Source: Nitrospira defluvii (GTDB taxonomy: Bacteria > Nitrospirota > Nitrospiria > Nitrospirales > Nitrospiraceae). From it: 64,000 nt of DNA. A model generated the notes under the pieces. That model saw nothing but the letters and a program-made list of their open reading frames with translations. It was not told the origin of the DNA and searched no databases. Positions within the stretch are counted from its first letter, which is position 1; every line of letters starts with the position of its first letter. Of this stretch, positions 42,941-49,755 are shown in pieces. Both the position numbers and the translations under genes were made by a program. Location: positions 1,573,501-1,637,500 of the forward strand of contig FP929003.1 of NCBI GenBank assembly GCA_000196815.1, given 5' to 3'.

Positions 42941-42953
42941 AGCCCGGTTTGGG

Positions 42954-42971
42954 GAAAATGGTGCCAGGCAC
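42954..42971 (+). repeat. Short REP-like motif, copy 1
   Basis: Reads GAAAATGGTGCCAGGCAC. The core TGGTGCCAGGC recurs at 43077-43087 and, degraded, near 49643. It resembles repetitive palindrome-type ends associated with REP/Y1 transposase elements in several bacteria; that identification is tentative. Confidence 0.45.
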
Positions 42972-43069
42972 AATCTCAGGCTCGTCTGAGCGGGAAGCGC
43001 GCTGCCGCGGTGATGTGGGCAGGCGCCGGGAGCGTTGCGAGTGGAGGGCGAATTCCAGCGTGGCTTCAG
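42957..43069. repeat. Left copy of the ~110-bp direct repeat bracketing the RHS island
   Basis: Aligns without major gaps with 49643-49755; about 85% of bases match by eye. On the minus strand it encodes the same ending 'RSRRLPTSPR' as the intact coiled-coil gene at 49687, so this is a severed 3' end of a second copy of that gene. Confidence 0.8.
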
Positions 43070-44912
43070 GAAAAACTGGTGCCAGGCGCCATTCACGATC
43101 ACCGATCCGACAGGGCAAGTCACGACGCTGGCCTATAGCGGGGGCAAGGTGAGCAGCGTCACCGACCCGGCGGGGCGCGTGACGCAGTTGGAGTATGACG
43201 CCAGTGGAAATCTGCAGCGGGTGCGCGGCGCGGATGCCACGGCGGTGACATTTACCTACGACGCCCAGCACCGGCTGATTCGCCGCACCGATGCGCGCAA
43301 TCAGGTCTTCCAGTACCGCTACGATGCCGCCGGCCGGTTTGCCGAGGCTACGTTGCCGGACGGGGCCACCCGAGCCCTGGCGTCGAGCCAGACCGTGGCC
43401 GTCCCCAATTTCACCACTGGCCAGGGCACGGCCGGCAATCCCGCGCCGCTGAGCGCGACCAGCCTGAATCGGGCGACCTTTACCGATGCCAAGGCGCAGG
43501 CGACGACGTTTGAACTGGATGCGTTGAGCCGGGTCACCAAGCAGACCGATGCGCTGAGCCGGGTGACCACCATCACGCGCAATGCCCAGGGGAATCCCAC
43601 GCAGATCACGCGGCCCAACGGCGCTGTGACCGTGATGACCTATGATGCCAAGGGCAACCTGCTCACCGCGACGGAGCAGGCCATCAACGCGACGACGACG
43701 TTCACCTATGAGCCGACGTTCAATCAGGTGACCAGCATCCGCGATCCCAAGGGGAATCTCACTCAGATCGCCTATGATGCGAAAGGTAACCCGCTCACGA
43801 TCACCGATGCGCTGAACCAGGTGACGACCTCCACGTACAACCCGCAGGGCCTGCTCCTCACGACGAAGGATGCGCTGAATCAGACCACCAGCTTTACCTA
43901 TGATGCCCTCGGGCGATTGCTCACCACGACCGATCCGCTGGCCCGTACGACGACGTTGACCTATGACGCGGCGGGCAACGTGGCCACCAGCACCGATGCC
44001 CTCACTCGCGTGACGACATTCACCTATGATGTCAGGAACCGCCTCACCCAGCTGACCGACCCCAATGCGGGCATCACCCGCTACGCCTATGACGGCAATG
44101 GGAACCTTCTCACGGTCACGGATGTGAAGAACCAAGCCACCACCTTCGCTTACGACAGCCGCAACCGGTTGCTCAGCACCACCGATCCCTTGGGCAAAGT
44201 CGAGACCTACACCTACGACGGCAACGACAATTTGACCAAGCGCCACACGCCCAAGGGCGACGACATTCTCTTCGCCTACGATGCCGTGAACCAGCTCGTG
44301 AGCAAAACCCTGCCCGGCACCCAGGTCACCAGCTACGCCTACGATCTCGTCGGCAACTTGACCACTGTGGTCGATCCAGATAGCGTGCTGGCCATGAGCT
44401 ATGACCAGGCGAATCGGCTGCTGAGTGTGAAGACCGACGGCTCGCCGAACCAACCGGCCGTGACGCTGGGCTATGGCTACGATCCCAACGGCAACCGGCT
44501 GACGCTGCCCGATCCGGTCCAGATCACCAGCTACTCGTACGATGCCGTCAATCGCCTCCAGTCCCTCACGCAGCCCCACGCCCGGCCACCCCGTTGCCCA
44601 CGCTGCTGGCTGCATGGCTCGGCGACGGCAGCGCGATCGATCCCGTCGGAGGCCAACATGGCCCGCTCCAACTGGGGACCGCGTTCGACCGCGGTGTGCG
44701 CCATCAGGCCTTTGCCTTCGATGGGGTCGATGACTACGTGCTCATTCCCGATTCCGCGGTGCTGGATAGTCTCAGCACCACCGCGACCGTGGACGCCTGG
44801 ATCAAGCCGGAGGTGCCGGTGGGGGCGGAGGGATGGATCTTCAGCCGGCGCGACCCGTTTGTCAGCGAAGGCTTCTCGGTGGCTCTGTTGCAAGACGGTA
44901 CGCTGCAATTGA
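43035..44912 (+). pseudogene. RHS-repeat protein, N-terminal piece (5'-truncated, frameshifted)
   Basis: From about 43095 to 44590 the frame is a run of YD repeats ('FTYDAQHRLIRRTDA', 'YAYDGNGNLLTVTD' and many more), the hallmark of RHS/YD proteins that form a shell around a toxin. There is no genuine start: the frame opens at a TTG inside the repeat that brackets the island, and no signal peptide, PAAR or N-terminal RHS domain is present. Near 44575-44592, in a CCCC-rich stretch, the coding sense moves to another frame; the rest to 44912 is out-of-frame noise. The continuation is the 44594 piece. Confidence 0.78.
43070..43090 (+). repeat. Short REP-like motif, copy 2, at the RHS truncation point
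   Basis: The core CTGGTGCCAGGCGCC is repeated here. Clear RHS coding sequence begins right after it, so the motif marks the breakpoint where the 5' part of the RHS gene was lost. Confidence 0.5.
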
Positions 44913-47086
44913 CCGTACGGACCACGACCAGCCCCACGGTGTCGGGCTCCACCTTCCGCTCGACGGCCCCGGTGATCACGTTTGGTCAATGGCACCATGT
45001 CGCGGCCGCGGTGGATACCGTGGCCGGCACGGCGCAGCTCTGGGTCAATGGCCAGCCGCTGACCCTGACGACGGTCTTTGGGCCCGTCACCCTGAGTGGC
45101 ACGCTGTCCAACGTGAACCAGCAGTACCTCGGACGGAGGCAGGACCCGAACACCGCGGGCGGCGGCGGGCATTTTAAGGGCGAGATCGACGAAGTGCGGC
45201 TCTATGGCCGAACGCTCACGCTGGCGGAGGTACAGAGCCGGGCACAGAACCAGCCGGTCGCCGCCTATGCGTACGACGCGCTCTCGCGCCGCACGAGTGT
45301 GACCCTGTCCAACGGGACGCAGAGCACCTACAGCTATGATCCCGCGTCTCAAGTCACCACCATCTTGCATCAACTCACGGCCACCAGTACGCCCATCAAT
45401 CAGGCCGAGTATGTCTACAACCCCGTCGGCAATCGGACCGCACTCACCGACCGACGTGGCGCGCAGACCTTCGGCTACGATCAGCTGGATCGGCTGACCA
45501 GCGCGAGCCATCCGCTGCTGCTCGATCCACAAGCCTTTGCCTACGATGCGGTCGGCAATCGAACCACGAATGGCAGTGTGACGAATGCCGGCAATCAACT
45601 CACGGCCGACAGCAACTTTGCCTACCAGTATGACGAGAATGGCAATCTGACGCGCAAGACGCTGCTGGCGACGGGCAATTACACGCAGTACAGCTACGAT
45701 GCGGAAAACCGGCTGGTGAAAGTCGATGAATTCGCCGCGGGGAATCCCAGCGCCATCACGATATCAACCTATCGCTACGATGGCCTGGGCAGACGGATCG
45801 AAAAGGTGGCCAATGGCCAGACCACCCGCTACGTCTACGATGGGGAAGATATCCTGCTGGAGTACAACGGCAGCAACGTGCTCCAGGCCACCTATACCCA
45901 CGGCCCCGGCATCGATGAGCCGGTGAGTCGGACGCCAATGGTGCCAGGTCTCGGCAGCGGGCAAGTTGTGGTGCTCGCCTCCACGCCGGATGGCCTGCGC
46001 GGGCCGGTAGTGGATGATGGGATCAAGGTGAACGGCCAGCTGTCGGTGGGCTTTGTGTTTGTCTCGGGGATGCCGGCACCGGCGATCGGCCAACCGATCG
46101 ACTCGACGGGGCTCGAACAGCCGGTGGCGCCGATCGACGTCACGGCCGCCGTGGCCACCGGGACGCTGGCGGTGGATCTGATCGATACGGGCGGCATCGG
46201 CGGGAACGCCCCGCTCTATCTCGTGACGCGGGACCAATCCACGAACCAGGTGCTCGAGAGCCGGCTCCTCTTTCCCGCCCGCGCGACCTTTGCCTCGACG
46301 ACCCCGCTCGGTACGCCGCTGGTGGTGGCCTCGACCACCGTCCCCACGACCACGCCGGTGGCTAACGGCACGCTGTTCTACCACCAAGATGGGTTGGGAT
46401 CGGTGACGGAGTTGACCGACAGCTCTGGCAGCGTGACGAAGGCCTACGCCTATGATGCGTATGGGAATATCCTCGAATCACCCGGCACGGTAAATCAGCC
46501 GTATACGTATACGGGGCGGGAACTCGATCAAGAGACGGGGCTCTATTATTACCGGGCGCGGTATTACGATCCCGCTACAGGGCGGTTCTTGCGGAAGGAT
46601 CCATGGAGATTTGTCAACGGCACGAATCTCTATGTGTACACTAGGAACAACCCAACGAATTTTGCTGATCCACTCGGACTGTGGCGGAACCCGTCAGACA
46701 TTTACGACGAGGCCATGAGGAGGGCGAAGAATAGTCCGTTCCCCGGTCCACATAATGGGCTGCAAGATGCTTATCGTCACTGCTTGGGGAGTTGTATGCT
46801 CACCCGAGAGAACTCCGAGTTTGAGGCTCGCATACTTGGTTGGATAAATGAAAAGCGCGGCGACTGGGCGCACAACCAGGAAGAAGGGGAGCGCGACATG
46901 GATGACGCCAACAATAAATGTGGAAGAGGGTTTGGAAAAACGGCGAATTCAACTGAAGATTGCGAACAATCCTGCGGCAACGCCGCGAGGAATGGCACGC
47001 TCCAGACGTATCAACAAGGATCAACGCCAGGTTATTGGGACTCCCTCTCGTCGTGGGTCCAGTCGTTGCCGTCGTGGTTGCCCTAG
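44594..47086 (+). CDS. RHS protein, C-terminal piece with LamG-like insert and toxin tip
   Basis: An 830-codon frame opening at a TTG without a clear ribosome site. Residues about 5-215 form a LamG/concanavalin-A-like domain ('FDGVDDYVLIPDSAVLD', 'WHHVAAAVDTVAGTAQLWVNG' region, 'GEIDEVRLYGRTLT'). YD repeats follow (about 225-420), then a beta-rich linker, the RHS core signature 'LYYYRARYYDPATGRFLRKDP' (region) and the 'DPLGLW' boundary. The last ~134 residues are the variable tip, with 'GLQDAYRHCLGSCMLTREN' and 'ERDMDDANNKCGRG', resembling the DUF6973-type domain; activity is unknown. Probably the 3' half of the frameshifted gene. A lipoprotein gene starts 1 nt after the stop. Confidence 0.78.
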   Translation: MPTLLAAWLGDGSAIDPVGGQHGPLQLGTAFDRGVRHQAFAFDGVDDYVLIPDSAVLDSLSTTATVDAWIKPEVPVGAEGWIFSRRDPFVSEGFSVALLQDGTLQLTVRTTTSPTVSGSTFRSTAPVITFGQWHHVAAAVDTVAGTAQLWVNGQPLTLTTVFGPVTLSGTLSNVNQQYLGRRQDPNTAGGGGHFKGEIDEVRLYGRTLTLAEVQSRAQNQPVAAYAYDALSRRTSVTLSNGTQSTYSYDPASQVTTILHQLTATSTPINQAEYVYNPVGNRTALTDRRGAQTFGYDQLDRLTSASHPLLLDPQAFAYDAVGNRTTNGSVTNAGNQLTADSNFAYQYDENGNLTRKTLLATGNYTQYSYDAENRLVKVDEFAAGNPSAITISTYRYDGLGRRIEKVANGQTTRYVYDGEDILLEYNGSNVLQATYTHGPGIDEPVSRTPMVPGLGSGQVVVLASTPDGLRGPVVDDGIKVNGQLSVGFVFVSGMPAPAIGQPIDSTGLEQPVAPIDVTAAVATGTLAVDLIDTGGIGGNAPLYLVTRDQSTNQVLESRLLFPARATFASTTPLGTPLVVASTTVPTTTPVANGTLFYHQDGLGSVTELTDSSGSVTKAYAYDAYGNILESPGTVNQPYTYTGRELDQETGLYYYRARYYDPATGRFLRKDPWRFVNGTNLYVYTRNNPTNFADPLGLWRNPSDIYDEAMRRAKNSPFPGPHNGLQDAYRHCLGSCMLTRENSEFEARILGWINEKRGDWAHNQEEGERDMDDANNKCGRGFGKTANSTEDCEQSCGNAARNGTLQTYQQGSTPGYWDSLSSWVQSLPSWLP

Positions 47087-47087
47087 T

Positions 47088-47657
47088 ATGTGGACATTGG
47101 CTCACATACGAATGGTTATTGGCTGCTCCCTCTTTGCGATGATGATCGCCGCCTGCGATCAAGATGTACTTTACGCCACCTCATTTACCGAGGTCGCCAC
47201 CGAGCGGACGAAATTGATCGATGAAATTGAAAGCTACCAAAGCACGGAGGAGGCAAGACGACGATTTCAGAAGTGGGCAGTGATCGAAAGTAGCAATCTC
47301 GCTCCTGGAGACAAGCGGCCCCCGTTTAGCATCCACGTGGTTGCCATCGACAACTACATGCATCTTGGTCACTCTGGAGCGCTACACCTAAAATTCTTCA
47401 ATAATCGGCTGGCTGAGGTGAGGTTCTATCCGAGCAGTTTCGAGCAGTATGTGGAGCGATTAAAGGAAGCCGATAAACTCGCCTTCAAGGTCACAGAGAC
47501 CAGTGCAGGCTTACCCGAGGCATTCATATCGCCGCATACCCATGTCTGGATCTATAACCAGCCACATCTCGATTCAAGCGGGAAAGAGAAGTATGTGGGA
47601 TGGAGAGACGTACGACTAGAAAAGGAAGAAACGCTTTGGATCAAACGCTATTCGTAG
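47088..47657 (+). CDS. Putative lipoprotein, likely RHS immunity protein
   Basis: Predicted 189-residue protein starting 1 nt after the RHS stop. A short basic N-terminus, hydrophobic stretch and lipobox MIAAC (cysteine at 23) predict a lipoprotein. The mature part contains 'LIDEIESYQSTEEARRRFQKW' (region), a pattern seen in other small toxin-linked lipoproteins, and a beta-rich C-terminus. Position directly behind a toxin tip argues for immunity. A periplasmic immunity protein would imply a periplasm-acting toxin. Not recognised by name. Confidence 0.68.
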   Translation: MWTLAHIRMVIGCSLFAMMIAACDQDVLYATSFTEVATERTKLIDEIESYQSTEEARRRFQKWAVIESSNLAPGDKRPPFSIHVVAIDNYMHLGHSGALHLKFFNNRLAEVRFYPSSFEQYVERLKEADKLAFKVTETSAGLPEAFISPHTHVWIYNQPHLDSSGKEKYVGWRDVRLEKEETLWIKRYS

Positions 47658-47793
47658 TCTGCCCGCCAATTGTGAGTGTGCCTGCTGTAGTACCGTCTCC
47701 AGCATCTCGCTGACGAACTTCTGCTTGGCCTTGTGCAAGCGGTTCAGGCGTTCGAGTTGCCGCTGCAACTTAGGCGTCGATTGCCGACTTCAT
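47655..47793 (-). pseudogene. Fragment of a small coiled-coil gene
   Basis: On the minus strand an ATG reads MKSAIDA then stops; shifting frame at that stop gives 'KLQRQLERLNRLHKAKQKFV' and 'SEMLETVLQQAHSQLAG'. This is a small helical protein broken by a one-base frameshift. It is similar in style to the intact coiled-coil gene at 49687, though not obviously homologous. Its 3' end runs into the lipoprotein gene. Low confidence. Confidence 0.4.
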
Positions 47794-47837
47794 CCGTGTG
47801 CTTGTAAACGTCTCCAGGGCTGCTAAAATCTCCTCCT

Positions 47838-48731
47838 ATGTCCTTGCTCCTTGCCGGGTGTCTGCCACGGAACGCCTCTCAGGATTCGGCCTTAACCTAC
47901 GACGAACTGGCGCAGGGGTTCTCCTATGATCCCGCTTCACAAGTGACCCAGATCCTCCATCAGCTGACGGCGACGAGTACGCCGATCAATAAGGCGGAGT
48001 ATCTGTACAACGGCGTGGGCAACAGAACGTCGTTGACGGATCGGAGAGGGCCGCAGACGTTTGGGTATGACGCTCTCGACAGACTGACCAGCACGAGCCA
48101 CCCCTTGCTGCTCGATCCGCAGGCTTTTGCCTACGATACGGTGGGGAACCGCACGACAGGCGGGAACGTGACCAACGCGGGCAATCAACTCACCGCCGAT
48201 GCCACGCACAGCTATCAATATGACGACAATGGAAACCTCACCAGAAAAACTCTGTTAGCGACGGGCAACTACACCCAATACACGTACGATGCCGAGAATC
48301 GGCTGGTGAAGGTCGAAGAATTTGCCACCGGTAATCCTGCTGCTATTACGATATCAACCTATCGCTACGATGGGCTGGGGCGCCGGATTGAAAAAGTGGC
48401 CAATGGCCAGACCACCCGCTATATCTATGATGGGGAAGATATCTTGTTGGAGTACAACGGCAGCAACGTGCTCCAAGCCACCTATACCCACGGCCCCGGC
48501 ATCGATGAGCCGGTGAGTCGGACGCCAATGGTGCCGGGCCTCGGCAGCGGGCAGGTTGTGTTGCTGGCCTCCACGCCGGATGGTCTGCGCGGGCCGGTGG
48601 TGGATGATGGGATTACGGTGAACGGCCAGCTGTCGGTGGGCTTCGTGTTTGTCTCGGGGATACCGGCACCGGCGATCGGCCAGTGTCCCGTCCACTTGGT
48701 CATCGTCGTATGTGGTTCCATTCGCCGTTGA
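47838..48731 (+). pseudogene. Second partial RHS copy
   Basis: A 297-codon frame. After a short 'MSLLLAGCLPRNASQ' leader, it matches the 45335-46090 part of the main RHS gene: YD repeats plus the linker up to 'PAPAIGQ'. It then stops matching at about 48683 and ends in unrelated sequence. It lacks the RHS core and any toxin tip. The first ~430 nt are about 80% like the main copy; the last ~330 nt are nearly identical, a mosaic pattern. The lipobox-like leader is too short for a normal signal peptide. Confidence 0.75.
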
Positions 48732-48974
48732 CTTCGGCCCGTTCGAGCTGATTCCTGAACCTGAAAGACTTATTCAGATTGATGTTTTCTCGGGCCGTCT
48801 TCTTGGTTGTCCCGTTGCATGGTTTGTCTTGTTCGGTTCAACACTCACCCCTCTGCACGGCACATTGGGGCAGAGACCAATGAACATGTGCATTCCCCTC
48901 AGAGGCGTTCAATTGTGGATTTGTTCTCATGAAGGCTCTTGTGCGTGCATTTAAGGCGTAGCCTATGCCTAGGA
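48732..48974. other. Non-coding stretch between RHS fragment and higBA
   Basis: No gene recognised. Composition is less GC-rich than average. It ends at the higBA promoter. Confidence 0.35.
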
Positions 48975-49001
48975 TTGACAGCTGAAACGTCACGCTATAC
49001 A
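48975..49001 (+). promoter_or_regulatory. Promoter of higBA
   Basis: Consensus -35 TTGACA (48975-48980) and -10 TATACA (48996-49001), with a short 15-nt spacer. The higB ATG lies 11 nt after the -10, with no ribosome site, so the transcript is probably leaderless. Confidence 0.5.
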
Positions 49002-49011
49002 GTCTCGTTTC

Positions 49012-49290
49012 ATGATCAAGACGTTTCGGCACAAGGGACTGCAAGCCTTCTTTGAAACCGGCAGCAAGGCAGGCATCCAGCCGCATCATGCGGCTCGACT
49101 CAAACGGCAACTCGCCCGGTTGGATTTGGCCACAACGGCGGCGGATATGAATGTGCCAGGATGGGGGCTGCATGTATTGGCCGGCAATTTGGCTGGCCGC
49201 TATGCGGTCTCTGTGAACGGGAATTGGCGGCTGACGTTCGGGTTCGATGGCGGGGATGCAGTACTCATTGATTACCACGATTATCACTAG
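49012..49290 (+). CDS. higB: HigB-type mRNA interferase toxin
   Basis: Predicted 92-residue RelE/ParE-superfamily protein. 'FRHKGLQAFFETGSKAGIQP' (start of the family), 'LARLDLATTAADMNVPGWGLH' (region), and 'YAVSVNGNWRLTFGFDGGDA' (region) closing with 'LIDYHDYH' are typical of host-inhibition HigB toxins that cut mRNA at the ribosome. The toxin gene precedes the antitoxin, as usual for higBA. Full length. Confidence 0.9.
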   Translation: MIKTFRHKGLQAFFETGSKAGIQPHHAARLKRQLARLDLATTAADMNVPGWGLHVLAGNLAGRYAVSVNGNWRLTFGFDGGDAVLIDYHDYH

Positions 49291-49302
49291 GAGAAAGACA
49301 TC

Positions 49303-49608
49303 ATGAGCCGAATGCACAATCCACCGCACCCCGGGGAGACCCTGCGAGAGGATATTTTGCCTGCCTTAGGCTTAAACGTGACGCAGGCCGCGAAGCAACT
49401 GGGGGTGACCCGAGCCGCACTATCACGCGTATTGAATGGCCGTGCAGCGATCTCTCCGGAAATGGCGTTGCGATTAGAGGGCTGGCTTGGAGTACAGCAC
49501 GGAGGGCGTGCCGATGTGTGGGTGGCGCAGCAGGCCGCGTACGACCTGTGGCTAGCCCGCAAGGCTGGTGCGCCAAGAGTGCGGCGTGCTGTCTTGGTCG
49601 AAGCATAA
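49303..49608 (+). CDS. higA: HigA-type antitoxin
   Basis: Predicted 101-residue XRE-type HTH protein. 'MHNPPHPGETLREDILPALGL' (region) is the family start; the HTH runs through 'TQAAKQLGVTRAALSRVLNGRA', and 'ISPEMALRLEGWLG' follows. It should neutralise HigB and repress the promoter upstream of higB. It starts 12 nt after higB with an AGGAG site. Confidence 0.92.
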   Translation: MSRMHNPPHPGETLREDILPALGLNVTQAAKQLGVTRAALSRVLNGRAAISPEMALRLEGWLGVQHGGRADVWVAQQAAYDLWLARKAGAPRVRRAVLVEA

Positions 49609-49642
49609 TCCCGATCTGCTATGGAAGCTGCATATCAGGAAG

Positions 49643-49755
49643 ATGGTGGCAGGAACCGCTTCAGGCCCGTCTGATCTGGAAGCGCGCTAGCGCGGTGATG
49701 TGGGCAGGCGGCGGGAGCGTTGCGCGTGGAGGGCAAATTCCAGCGCGGCTTCGAG
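49643..49755. repeat. Right copy of the ~110-bp direct repeat
   Basis: Matches 42957-43069. Most of it is the 3' end of the minus-strand coiled-coil gene (stop at 49687) and the sequence just beyond it, including a degraded TGGTG-CAGG motif. The intact gene here makes this the likely parental copy. Confidence 0.8.

What the first reader, a model, noticed from the sequence alone, without database searches (positions are those of the whole stretch)
46686..47657. Candidate new RHS toxin tip and lipoprotein immunity pair
The variable tip after DPLGLW has a D-x-x-RHC...NNxxGR-type core, and 1 nt later a lipoprotein starts. A secreted or surface immunity protein would point to a toxin acting in the periplasm, less common than nuclease tips.
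Basis: partly seen in the sequence, partly recalled or inferred. Interest (0 to 1): 0.55.

Follow-up and report, generated by a model that had tools for sequence, protein, structure and literature searches.

The report
Wnt-like RHS toxin with lipoprotein antidote
A Nitrospira RHS gene fragment ends in a small toxin domain related to the animal proteins Wnt and serum amyloid A, followed directly by an exported lipoprotein that probably neutralises it; Escherichia coli K-12 carries the same kind of pair (RhsE/YdcD), so the idea can be tested in a laboratory strain.

Summary
In detail: an RHS core ends at DPLGLW, a 133-aa tip follows (46685-47083), and 1 nt after its stop a lipoprotein starts (47088-47657). 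The tip is not a new family: it is Pfam PF22322 (DUF6973), and it matches the Min-Wnt group of the Lipocone superfamily published in 2025 (four-helix core plus fifth helix, His/Glu/Asp in helices 2/3/4, NNxxGR). Nearest solved relatives are the T6SS effector BteO, serum amyloid A and Wnt-5a/7a. Periplasmic action is supported: next genes of C-terminal DUF6973 proteins look exported in 42 of 63 loci against 46 of 314 background genes, though 9 of 18 other Nitrospirota RHS tips show the same. Tip cysteines co-vary as two pairs, as expected of disulfides. New here: the E. coli K-12 RhsE tip is also DUF6973, and its neighbour YdcD is the best fold match (low-confidence model) and best profile match of this lipoprotein. 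Most likely the tip cleaves a lipid-linked head group such as lipid II outside the cytoplasm and the lipoprotein blocks it. In this genome the RHS gene changes frame and lacks a visible export end, so activity here is doubtful.

The parts
43035..44575 (+). Upstream RHS repeat stretch, read in another frame than the tip; end approximate
   Evidence: YD repeats in ORF 43035-44912, which leaves RHS sequence near 44575; no signal peptide or PAAR end seen
44594..46684 (+). RHS part in frame with the tip: laminin-G-like domain (44720-45235), RHS repeats, Rhs_assc_core (46451-46681), DPLGLW
46685..47083 (+). Toxin tip, DUF6973 / Min-Wnt-like lipocone domain; H32, E56, D73 and NNxxGR; Cys33, 37, 79, 93, 97
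   Evidence: PF22322 37.5 bits; model pLDDT 89.1; BteO, SAA and Wnt matches; cysteine co-variation
47088..47657 (+). Putative immunity lipoprotein, signal and lipobox to Cys23 (47088-47156), mature part from Cys23 (47154-47654)
47924..48511 (+). Second, tipless copy of RHS core sequence (74-85% identical to 45334-45921)
   Evidence: repeats D1 and D2
42953..43067 (.). 115-nt direct repeat, left copy, bracketing the RHS island
   Evidence: repeat D3, 86% identity to 49638-49752
49638..49752 (.). 115-nt direct repeat, right copy
   Evidence: repeat D3

Best explanation
The pair is a polymorphic-toxin cassette: an RHS C-terminal toxin of the Min-Wnt (SAA-Wnt clade, Lipocone) kind and its lipoprotein immunity protein. 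Inferred mechanism: in an intact RHS protein the tip is carried to another bacterium and released outside the cytoplasm, where it folds with two disulfides between helices 2 and 5. Its pocket (H32, E56, D73) then cleaves the phosphate-linked head group of a membrane lipid, most likely of the lipid II or undecaprenyl-phosphate class. The lipoprotein, anchored on the periplasmic side, binds and blocks the tip. Shown here: homology, predicted fold, motif, cysteine co-variation, linkage, export signal. Not shown: toxicity, substrate, binding, delivery. In this genome the RHS gene changes frame and has no visible export end, so the cassette may be dormant.
For: DUF6973 over its cut-off. Model with the SAA-Wnt clade anatomy (compared with PMC12419801 sections 5, 7, 9). 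Profile hits to BteO 3.4e-12 and Wnt-5a/7a 0.023-0.049, the only four hits; VIA Z 13.8 BteO, 7.9-9.4 SAA; Pfam wnt weakly matched by 11 of 92 members. Exported next gene in 42 of 63 against 46 of 314. Cys37 with Cys93 in 13 of 13; Cys33 with Cys97 in 35, apart in 2 and 4. Lipoprotein kept next to close tip relatives and most like YdcD, the neighbour of the DUF6973 tip of E. coli RhsE. Substrate class rests on PMC12419801 and on TelC, a lipid II phosphatase with a membrane-anchored immunity protein (abstract of PMC6193138).
Against: Foldseek alone found no significant match for the tip. 9 of 18 other Nitrospirota RHS tips also have exported neighbours, no significant difference (p 0.27). The lipoprotein model is weak (pLDDT 63.6). 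The substrate is inferred only from the superfamily. The RHS gene here is broken in frame and lacks an export end.
Confidence: 0.7

Rival explanations
1. Dead cassette: in this strain the tip and lipoprotein are remnants of a former RHS toxin; neither is delivered now, though their relatives work as described.
For: Frame change near 44575-44600, no export end, only RHS core in the genome.
Against: Tip and lipoprotein frames are open; against L051 dN/dS is about 0.04 and 0.13 with dS saturated, which shows constraint in their history, not necessarily now.
Confidence: 0.45
2. The tip acts on another envelope target than carrier lipids, for instance phospholipid head groups or peptidoglycan itself, still in the periplasm and still blocked by the lipoprotein.
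For: PMC12419801 allows phospholipid and polyisoprenoid substrates for the superfamily (sections 7 and 29); no member of DUF6973 has a substrate shown in what I read.
Against: The one characterised lipocone toxin, TelC, cleaves lipid II (abstract).
Confidence: 0.3
3. The lipoprotein is not an immunity protein but an unrelated envelope gene that happens to follow.
For: No direct test; a neighbouring lipoprotein is not rare beside Nitrospirota RHS tips.
Against: 1-nt spacing and tip partner kept across two phyla; found in no genome without its tip among 390 apart from one partial match to another protein; best matches are YdcD and RhsI1, both next to RHS tips.
Confidence: 0.1
4. A cytoplasmic toxin such as a nuclease, with the lipoprotein acting on something else.
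For: Many RHS tips are nucleases (recalled).
Against: No nuclease family matched the tip; lipocone features met; paired cysteines and exported neighbours.
Confidence: 0.04

Closest known systems
Escherichia coli K-12 RhsE C-terminal tip / YdcD
   Same: Tip is PF22322 at 46.6 bits and 34% identical over 86 residues; four cysteines at matching places by eye; partner gene directly downstream and membrane-anchored; YdcD double-wing domain 8wj5 is the best fold match of the lipoprotein
   Different: YdcD starts with a TM segment and has no lipobox; sequence link to the lipoprotein is weak (hhalign P 0.0009, probability 23%); no function of either found in the papers searched
Min-Wnt family, Lipocone superfamily (PMC12419801)
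   Same: Four-helix core, fifth helix, His/Glu/Asp, sNxxGR, toxin tip with membrane or lipoprotein immunity
   Different: The main text names neither DUF6973 nor RhsE, YdcD, Nitrospira or disulfides; the equation with DUF6973 is my inference; supplements not read
Bacteroides fragilis T6SS effector BteO (PDB 9uu0)
   Same: Profile hit 3.4e-12 with FRH, HE and NNxxGR aligned; VIA Z 13.8 over 117 residues
   Different: Not described as RHS in the entry title; no paper found
Wnt-5a/Wnt-7a and serum amyloid A
   Same: Helix-4 motif (M-x-L-x-NN-x-x-GR) and fold
   Different: Animal proteins; metazoan Wnt is catalytically inactive according to PMC12419801
TelC/TipC of Streptococcus intermedius
   Same: Placed in the same superfamily by PMC12419801; acts outside the cytoplasm; membrane-anchored immunity (abstract of PMC6193138)
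   Different: Another lipocone clade, Gram-positive, T7SS; not compared by sequence here

Membership tests
Pfam PF22322 (DUF6973) | Score over the curated cut-off of 27 bits | tested here: met
   37.5 bits, tip residues 9-91
Min-Wnt / SAA-Wnt clade of the Lipocone superfamily | Four-helix core plus a fifth helix | tested here: met
   Helices 3-15, 26-42, 45-63, 67-84, 90-102, pLDDT 89.1
Min-Wnt / SAA-Wnt clade of the Lipocone superfamily | His in helix 2, Glu in helix 3, Asp in helix 4 | tested here: met
   H32, E56, D73 invariant in 92 sequences; H32 lies in the search pattern, so only E56 and D73 are independent
Min-Wnt / SAA-Wnt clade of the Lipocone superfamily | sNxxGR motif in helix 4 | tested here: met
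   N76-N77-K-C-G80-R81 in helix 67-84
Min-Wnt / SAA-Wnt clade of the Lipocone superfamily | Sequence or fold relation to Wnt or SAA | tested here: met
   Wnt-5a/7a E 0.023-0.049; SAA Z 7.9-9.4; Pfam wnt 11 of 92 members, best 0.0013. Weak one by one, consistent together
Min-Wnt / SAA-Wnt clade of the Lipocone superfamily | Acts on lipid head groups | not testable with these tools
   Inferred from PMC12419801 sections 7 and 29
RHS polymorphic toxin | RHS repeats and Rhs_assc_core followed by a variable tip | tested here: met
   TIGR03696 to residue 696, then tip; G+C step
RHS polymorphic toxin | Export or delivery signal at the N-terminus of one open gene | tested here: not met
   Frame change and no signal peptide or PAAR end seen; relatives L009, L038 and L085 show signal-like N-termini by eye
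RHS polymorphic toxin | Downstream cognate immunity gene | tested here: inconclusive
   Linked lipoprotein kept with the tip; no rescue or binding test
Bacterial lipoprotein | Hydrophobic signal and lipobox cysteine | tested here: met
   MIAA-C23 here, MIAG-C in L051, VLG-C in L068
YdcD family (NF050020 / double-wing fold) | NCBIfam score over the cut-off of 65 bits | tested here: not met
   12.3 bits, E 0.12; not filed as a YdcD family member
YdcD family (NF050020 / double-wing fold) | Double-wing fold | tested here: inconclusive
   Best fold match 8wj5, Z 9.4 over 114 residues, Foldseek E 0.0045, but model pLDDT 63.6
BamE-like immunity proteins | Two-helix hairpin then three strands | tested here: inconclusive
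   Two short helices then strands in a weak model; weak BamJ hits E 0.011 and 0.0064

The most novel reading that the evidence does not exclude
RHS tips of the RhsE type form a periplasm-only, disulfide-locked Wnt-like toxin class: the tip is inactive until an oxidising periplasm closes Cys33-Cys97 and Cys37-Cys93, then it destroys a carrier lipid such as lipid II, and YdcD-like double-wing proteins (TM-anchored or lipoproteins) are its dedicated inhibitors. E. coli RhsE/YdcD would be the long-unexplained model member.
Probability: 0.35. Interest if true: 0.68.

Novelty: new member of a known kind. Interest (0 to 1): 0.46.

Why it matters
It ties a Pfam domain of unknown function to a published enzyme superfamily that includes the bacterial forerunners of Wnt, and it gives a concrete hypothesis for E. 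coli RhsE and YdcD, whose tip-plus-ydcD DNA has a match in 2522 of 5426 complete E. coli genomes (2439 with at least 80% of the query). The cysteine pairs suggest in which compartment the toxin becomes active. All of this can be tested in ordinary K-12 laboratory strains.

Tried and rejected
Foldseek of the tip against PDB gave nothing significant. PHROGs gave no useful match for tip or lipoprotein. No relative of the lipoprotein was found in viral contigs, and none of tip or lipoprotein in plasmids. The third genome hit for the lipoprotein (G090, E 0.003, inside a 1298-aa frame) was set aside as a partial match to a different protein. The idea that exported next genes single out DUF6973 among RHS tips was tested and not supported: 9 of 18 other Nitrospirota RHS tips scored (of 29 loci; 11 dropped because the script found no core motif with a stop in reach) also have one, p 0.27. 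A nuclease reading was rejected because no nuclease family matched the tip. A link of the lipoprotein to BamE-like proteins stayed inconclusive; BamE itself was not in the fold list. The NMB0488 hit of the lipoprotein in PDB sequences (E 0.14) was not followed. Literature: no paper in the held library names DUF6973 or BteO with B. fragilis; 'Min-Wnt' is in one; YdcD with RhsE in two, neither about their function by title and start of abstract; a wider search for RhsE/YdcD with toxin and immunity listed nine, none holding both names by the counts shown; some searches gave listings without a relevant title (8 of 12,831 shown). Supplementary files could not be read.

Rows dropped before counts: A2 holds 91 of 99 non-redundant domains from 127 loci, plus the window; I left out L036, L110, L113, L114, L120, L126, L129 and L130, by judgement, most of them for a long insert. 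The 63 loci exclude ORFs open at the 3' end, loci with under 300 bases downstream, and 14 with more than 130 residues after the motif (1 of those 14 exported). Among the 63, 11 had no candidate gene and 10 had one without an export signal. Export was judged by a hydrophobicity and lipobox script, loosened between (39 of 63; 42 of 63) after I saw clear lipoproteins missed; the looser rule was also applied to the background of 314, not to the RHS control. The background uses crude ORF calls. Fisher values ignore relatedness.

Full report
Setting. The window lies in a single-contig genome of 4,317,083 bases; its size equals what I recall for Nitrospira defluvii, which I did not look up. The finding sits at the 3' end of an RHS region on the + strand.

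Observation. The RHS core (TIGR03696) ends at residue 696 of the ORF read from 44594. The 133-residue tip is 46685-47083; TAG is 47084-47086; ATG of the next gene is 47088. The next gene encodes 189 residues with a hydrophobic start and MIAA-C23.

What the tip is. It scores 37.5 bits against Pfam PF22322, DUF6973 (cut-off 27). The family is sparse in the phylum: 5 of 395 Nitrospirota genomes. A scan with a five-sequence alignment gave 80 loci in bacterial genomes (the best 80 of 153 relatives) and 47 in viral contigs. These were found with the pattern HN[GDN]xxDA[YMF]RH, so those residues are conserved by construction. In the 92-sequence alignment E56, D73 and G80 are also invariant, and E69, M72, N76 and N77 nearly so. 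The AlphaFold2 model has mean pLDDT 89.1 and pTM 0.83, with five helices in the first 102 residues.

Comparison with what is known. PMC12419801 (abstract, sections 5, 7, 9 and 27 with its sub-sections 28-31 read) defines the Lipocone superfamily. Its SAA-Wnt clade has a four-helix core, a fifth helix, a sNxxGR motif in helix 4 and largely keeps the ancestral His/Glu/Asp of helices 2/3/4; Min-Wnt domains serve as polymorphic-toxin tips, and the immunity proteins found for lipocone toxins are all TM or lipoproteins. The window tip shows each of these structural features. A profile search of PDB sequences returned four sequences only: BteO of Bacteroides fragilis (3.4e-12), Wnt-5a twice (0.023, 0.025) and Wnt-7a (0.049), aligned over the MxLxNNxxGR stretch. 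VIA-align put BteO at Z 13.8 and serum amyloid A at 7.9-9.4, with unrelated rows from 4.9 down; Foldseek alone saw nothing significant. The paper's main text does not contain DUF6973, so equating DUF6973 with Min-Wnt is my inference.

Where it acts. The next gene of bacterial C-terminal DUF6973 proteins carries an export signal in 42 of 63 loci (21 lipoprotein, 21 TM or signal peptide) against 46 of 314 other next genes in the same loci (Fisher p 3e-16, which ignores relatedness). These neighbours are of several unlike sequence groups by eye, so export is kept while the sequence changes. But 9 of 18 other Nitrospirota RHS tips also have an exported neighbour, so the signal is not specific among RHS tips. 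Independent support comes from cysteines: in 92 sequences Cys37 and Cys93 occur together in 13 and never apart, and Cys33 and Cys97 together in 35, apart in 2 and 4 (allowing one column of slack at 93 and 97). By the paper the fifth helix stacks between helices 2 and 4, so two disulfides between helices 2 and 5 are likely; that fits an oxidising compartment.

The partner. The lipoprotein has relatives only beside close relatives of this tip: L007/L051 (75% identity; tip 83%) and L068, a Comamonadaceae MAG (31% in the alignment, tblastn E 1.6e-8; tip 61%), each 1 nt after the tip. Among 390 Nitrospirota genomes only the own genome and G330 hold full matches. Its model is weak (pLDDT 63.6), yet the top fold match is the double-wing domain of E. 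coli YdcD (Foldseek E 0.0045; Z 9.4 over 114 residues) and the second is RhsI1, an RHS immunity protein (Z 6.8). By hhalign YdcD ranks first of 54 proteins, P 0.0009 against 0.037 for the next; the other 53 are next-gene ORFs of DUF6973 loci; reversed YdcD gives 0.45.

The E. coli link. ydcD lies directly after rhsE in K-12, where rhsE is annotated as a pseudogene. Reading its end shows a PF22322 tip at 46.6 bits, 34% identical to the window tip over 86 residues. So tip family and partner fold both point to the same E. coli pair. RhsE-tip-plus-ydcD DNA has a match in 2522 of 5426 complete E. coli genomes, 2439 with at least 80% coverage. I found no paper in the held library that reports this (supplements not readable, and most subscription papers and preprints are not held).

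State of this copy. The RHS frame changes near 44575-44600, no signal peptide or PAAR end was seen upstream, and this is the only RHS core match in the genome. G+C falls from about 0.66 to 0.51 at the tip. A tipless core copy follows (47924-48511), and 115-nt repeats bracket 42953-49752. Against L051, dN/dS is about 0.04 for the tip, 0.13 for the lipoprotein and 0.17 for the core end, with dS saturated. The pair was under constraint in its history; whether it still works here is open.

Verdict. The added value is the assignment of DUF6973 to Min-Wnt, the cysteine pairs and the RhsE/YdcD parallel.

Noticed in passing
L168:3903-4905 (E. coli K-12 MG1655, record 1529402-1530404): The C-terminal tip of E. 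coli RhsE is a DUF6973 domain, and ydcD, TM-anchored, follows it; no function for the pair was found in the papers searched.
   Followed up: partly
L099-L104, L107, L111, L115-L118, L121-L125, L132, L133; L101, L108, L112, L131: Viral contigs carry short stand-alone DUF6973 proteins (about 131-153 residues) without an export signal by eye, or the domain inside large proteins; in L101, L108, L112 and L131 the next gene is a large protein with a weak head-tail adaptor match (one tested). This is another context than the toxins.
   Followed up: partly
window 42953-49752: The RHS island is bracketed by 115-nt direct repeats and holds a second, tipless core copy after the lipoprotein; L003 and L004 also show RHS core sequence after the next gene.
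   Followed up: no
L149, L152 (other Nitrospirota RHS loci): Two other RHS tips look by eye like zinc-dependent phospholipase C domains and have exported neighbours; Nitrospirota RHS tips may often act on envelopes.
   Followed up: no
L064, L073, L082, L086 (Lysobacter, Xanthomonas, Stenotrophomonas): DUF6973 proteins with about 245-250 further residues after the motif start and no exported next gene found: a different architecture.
   Followed up: no
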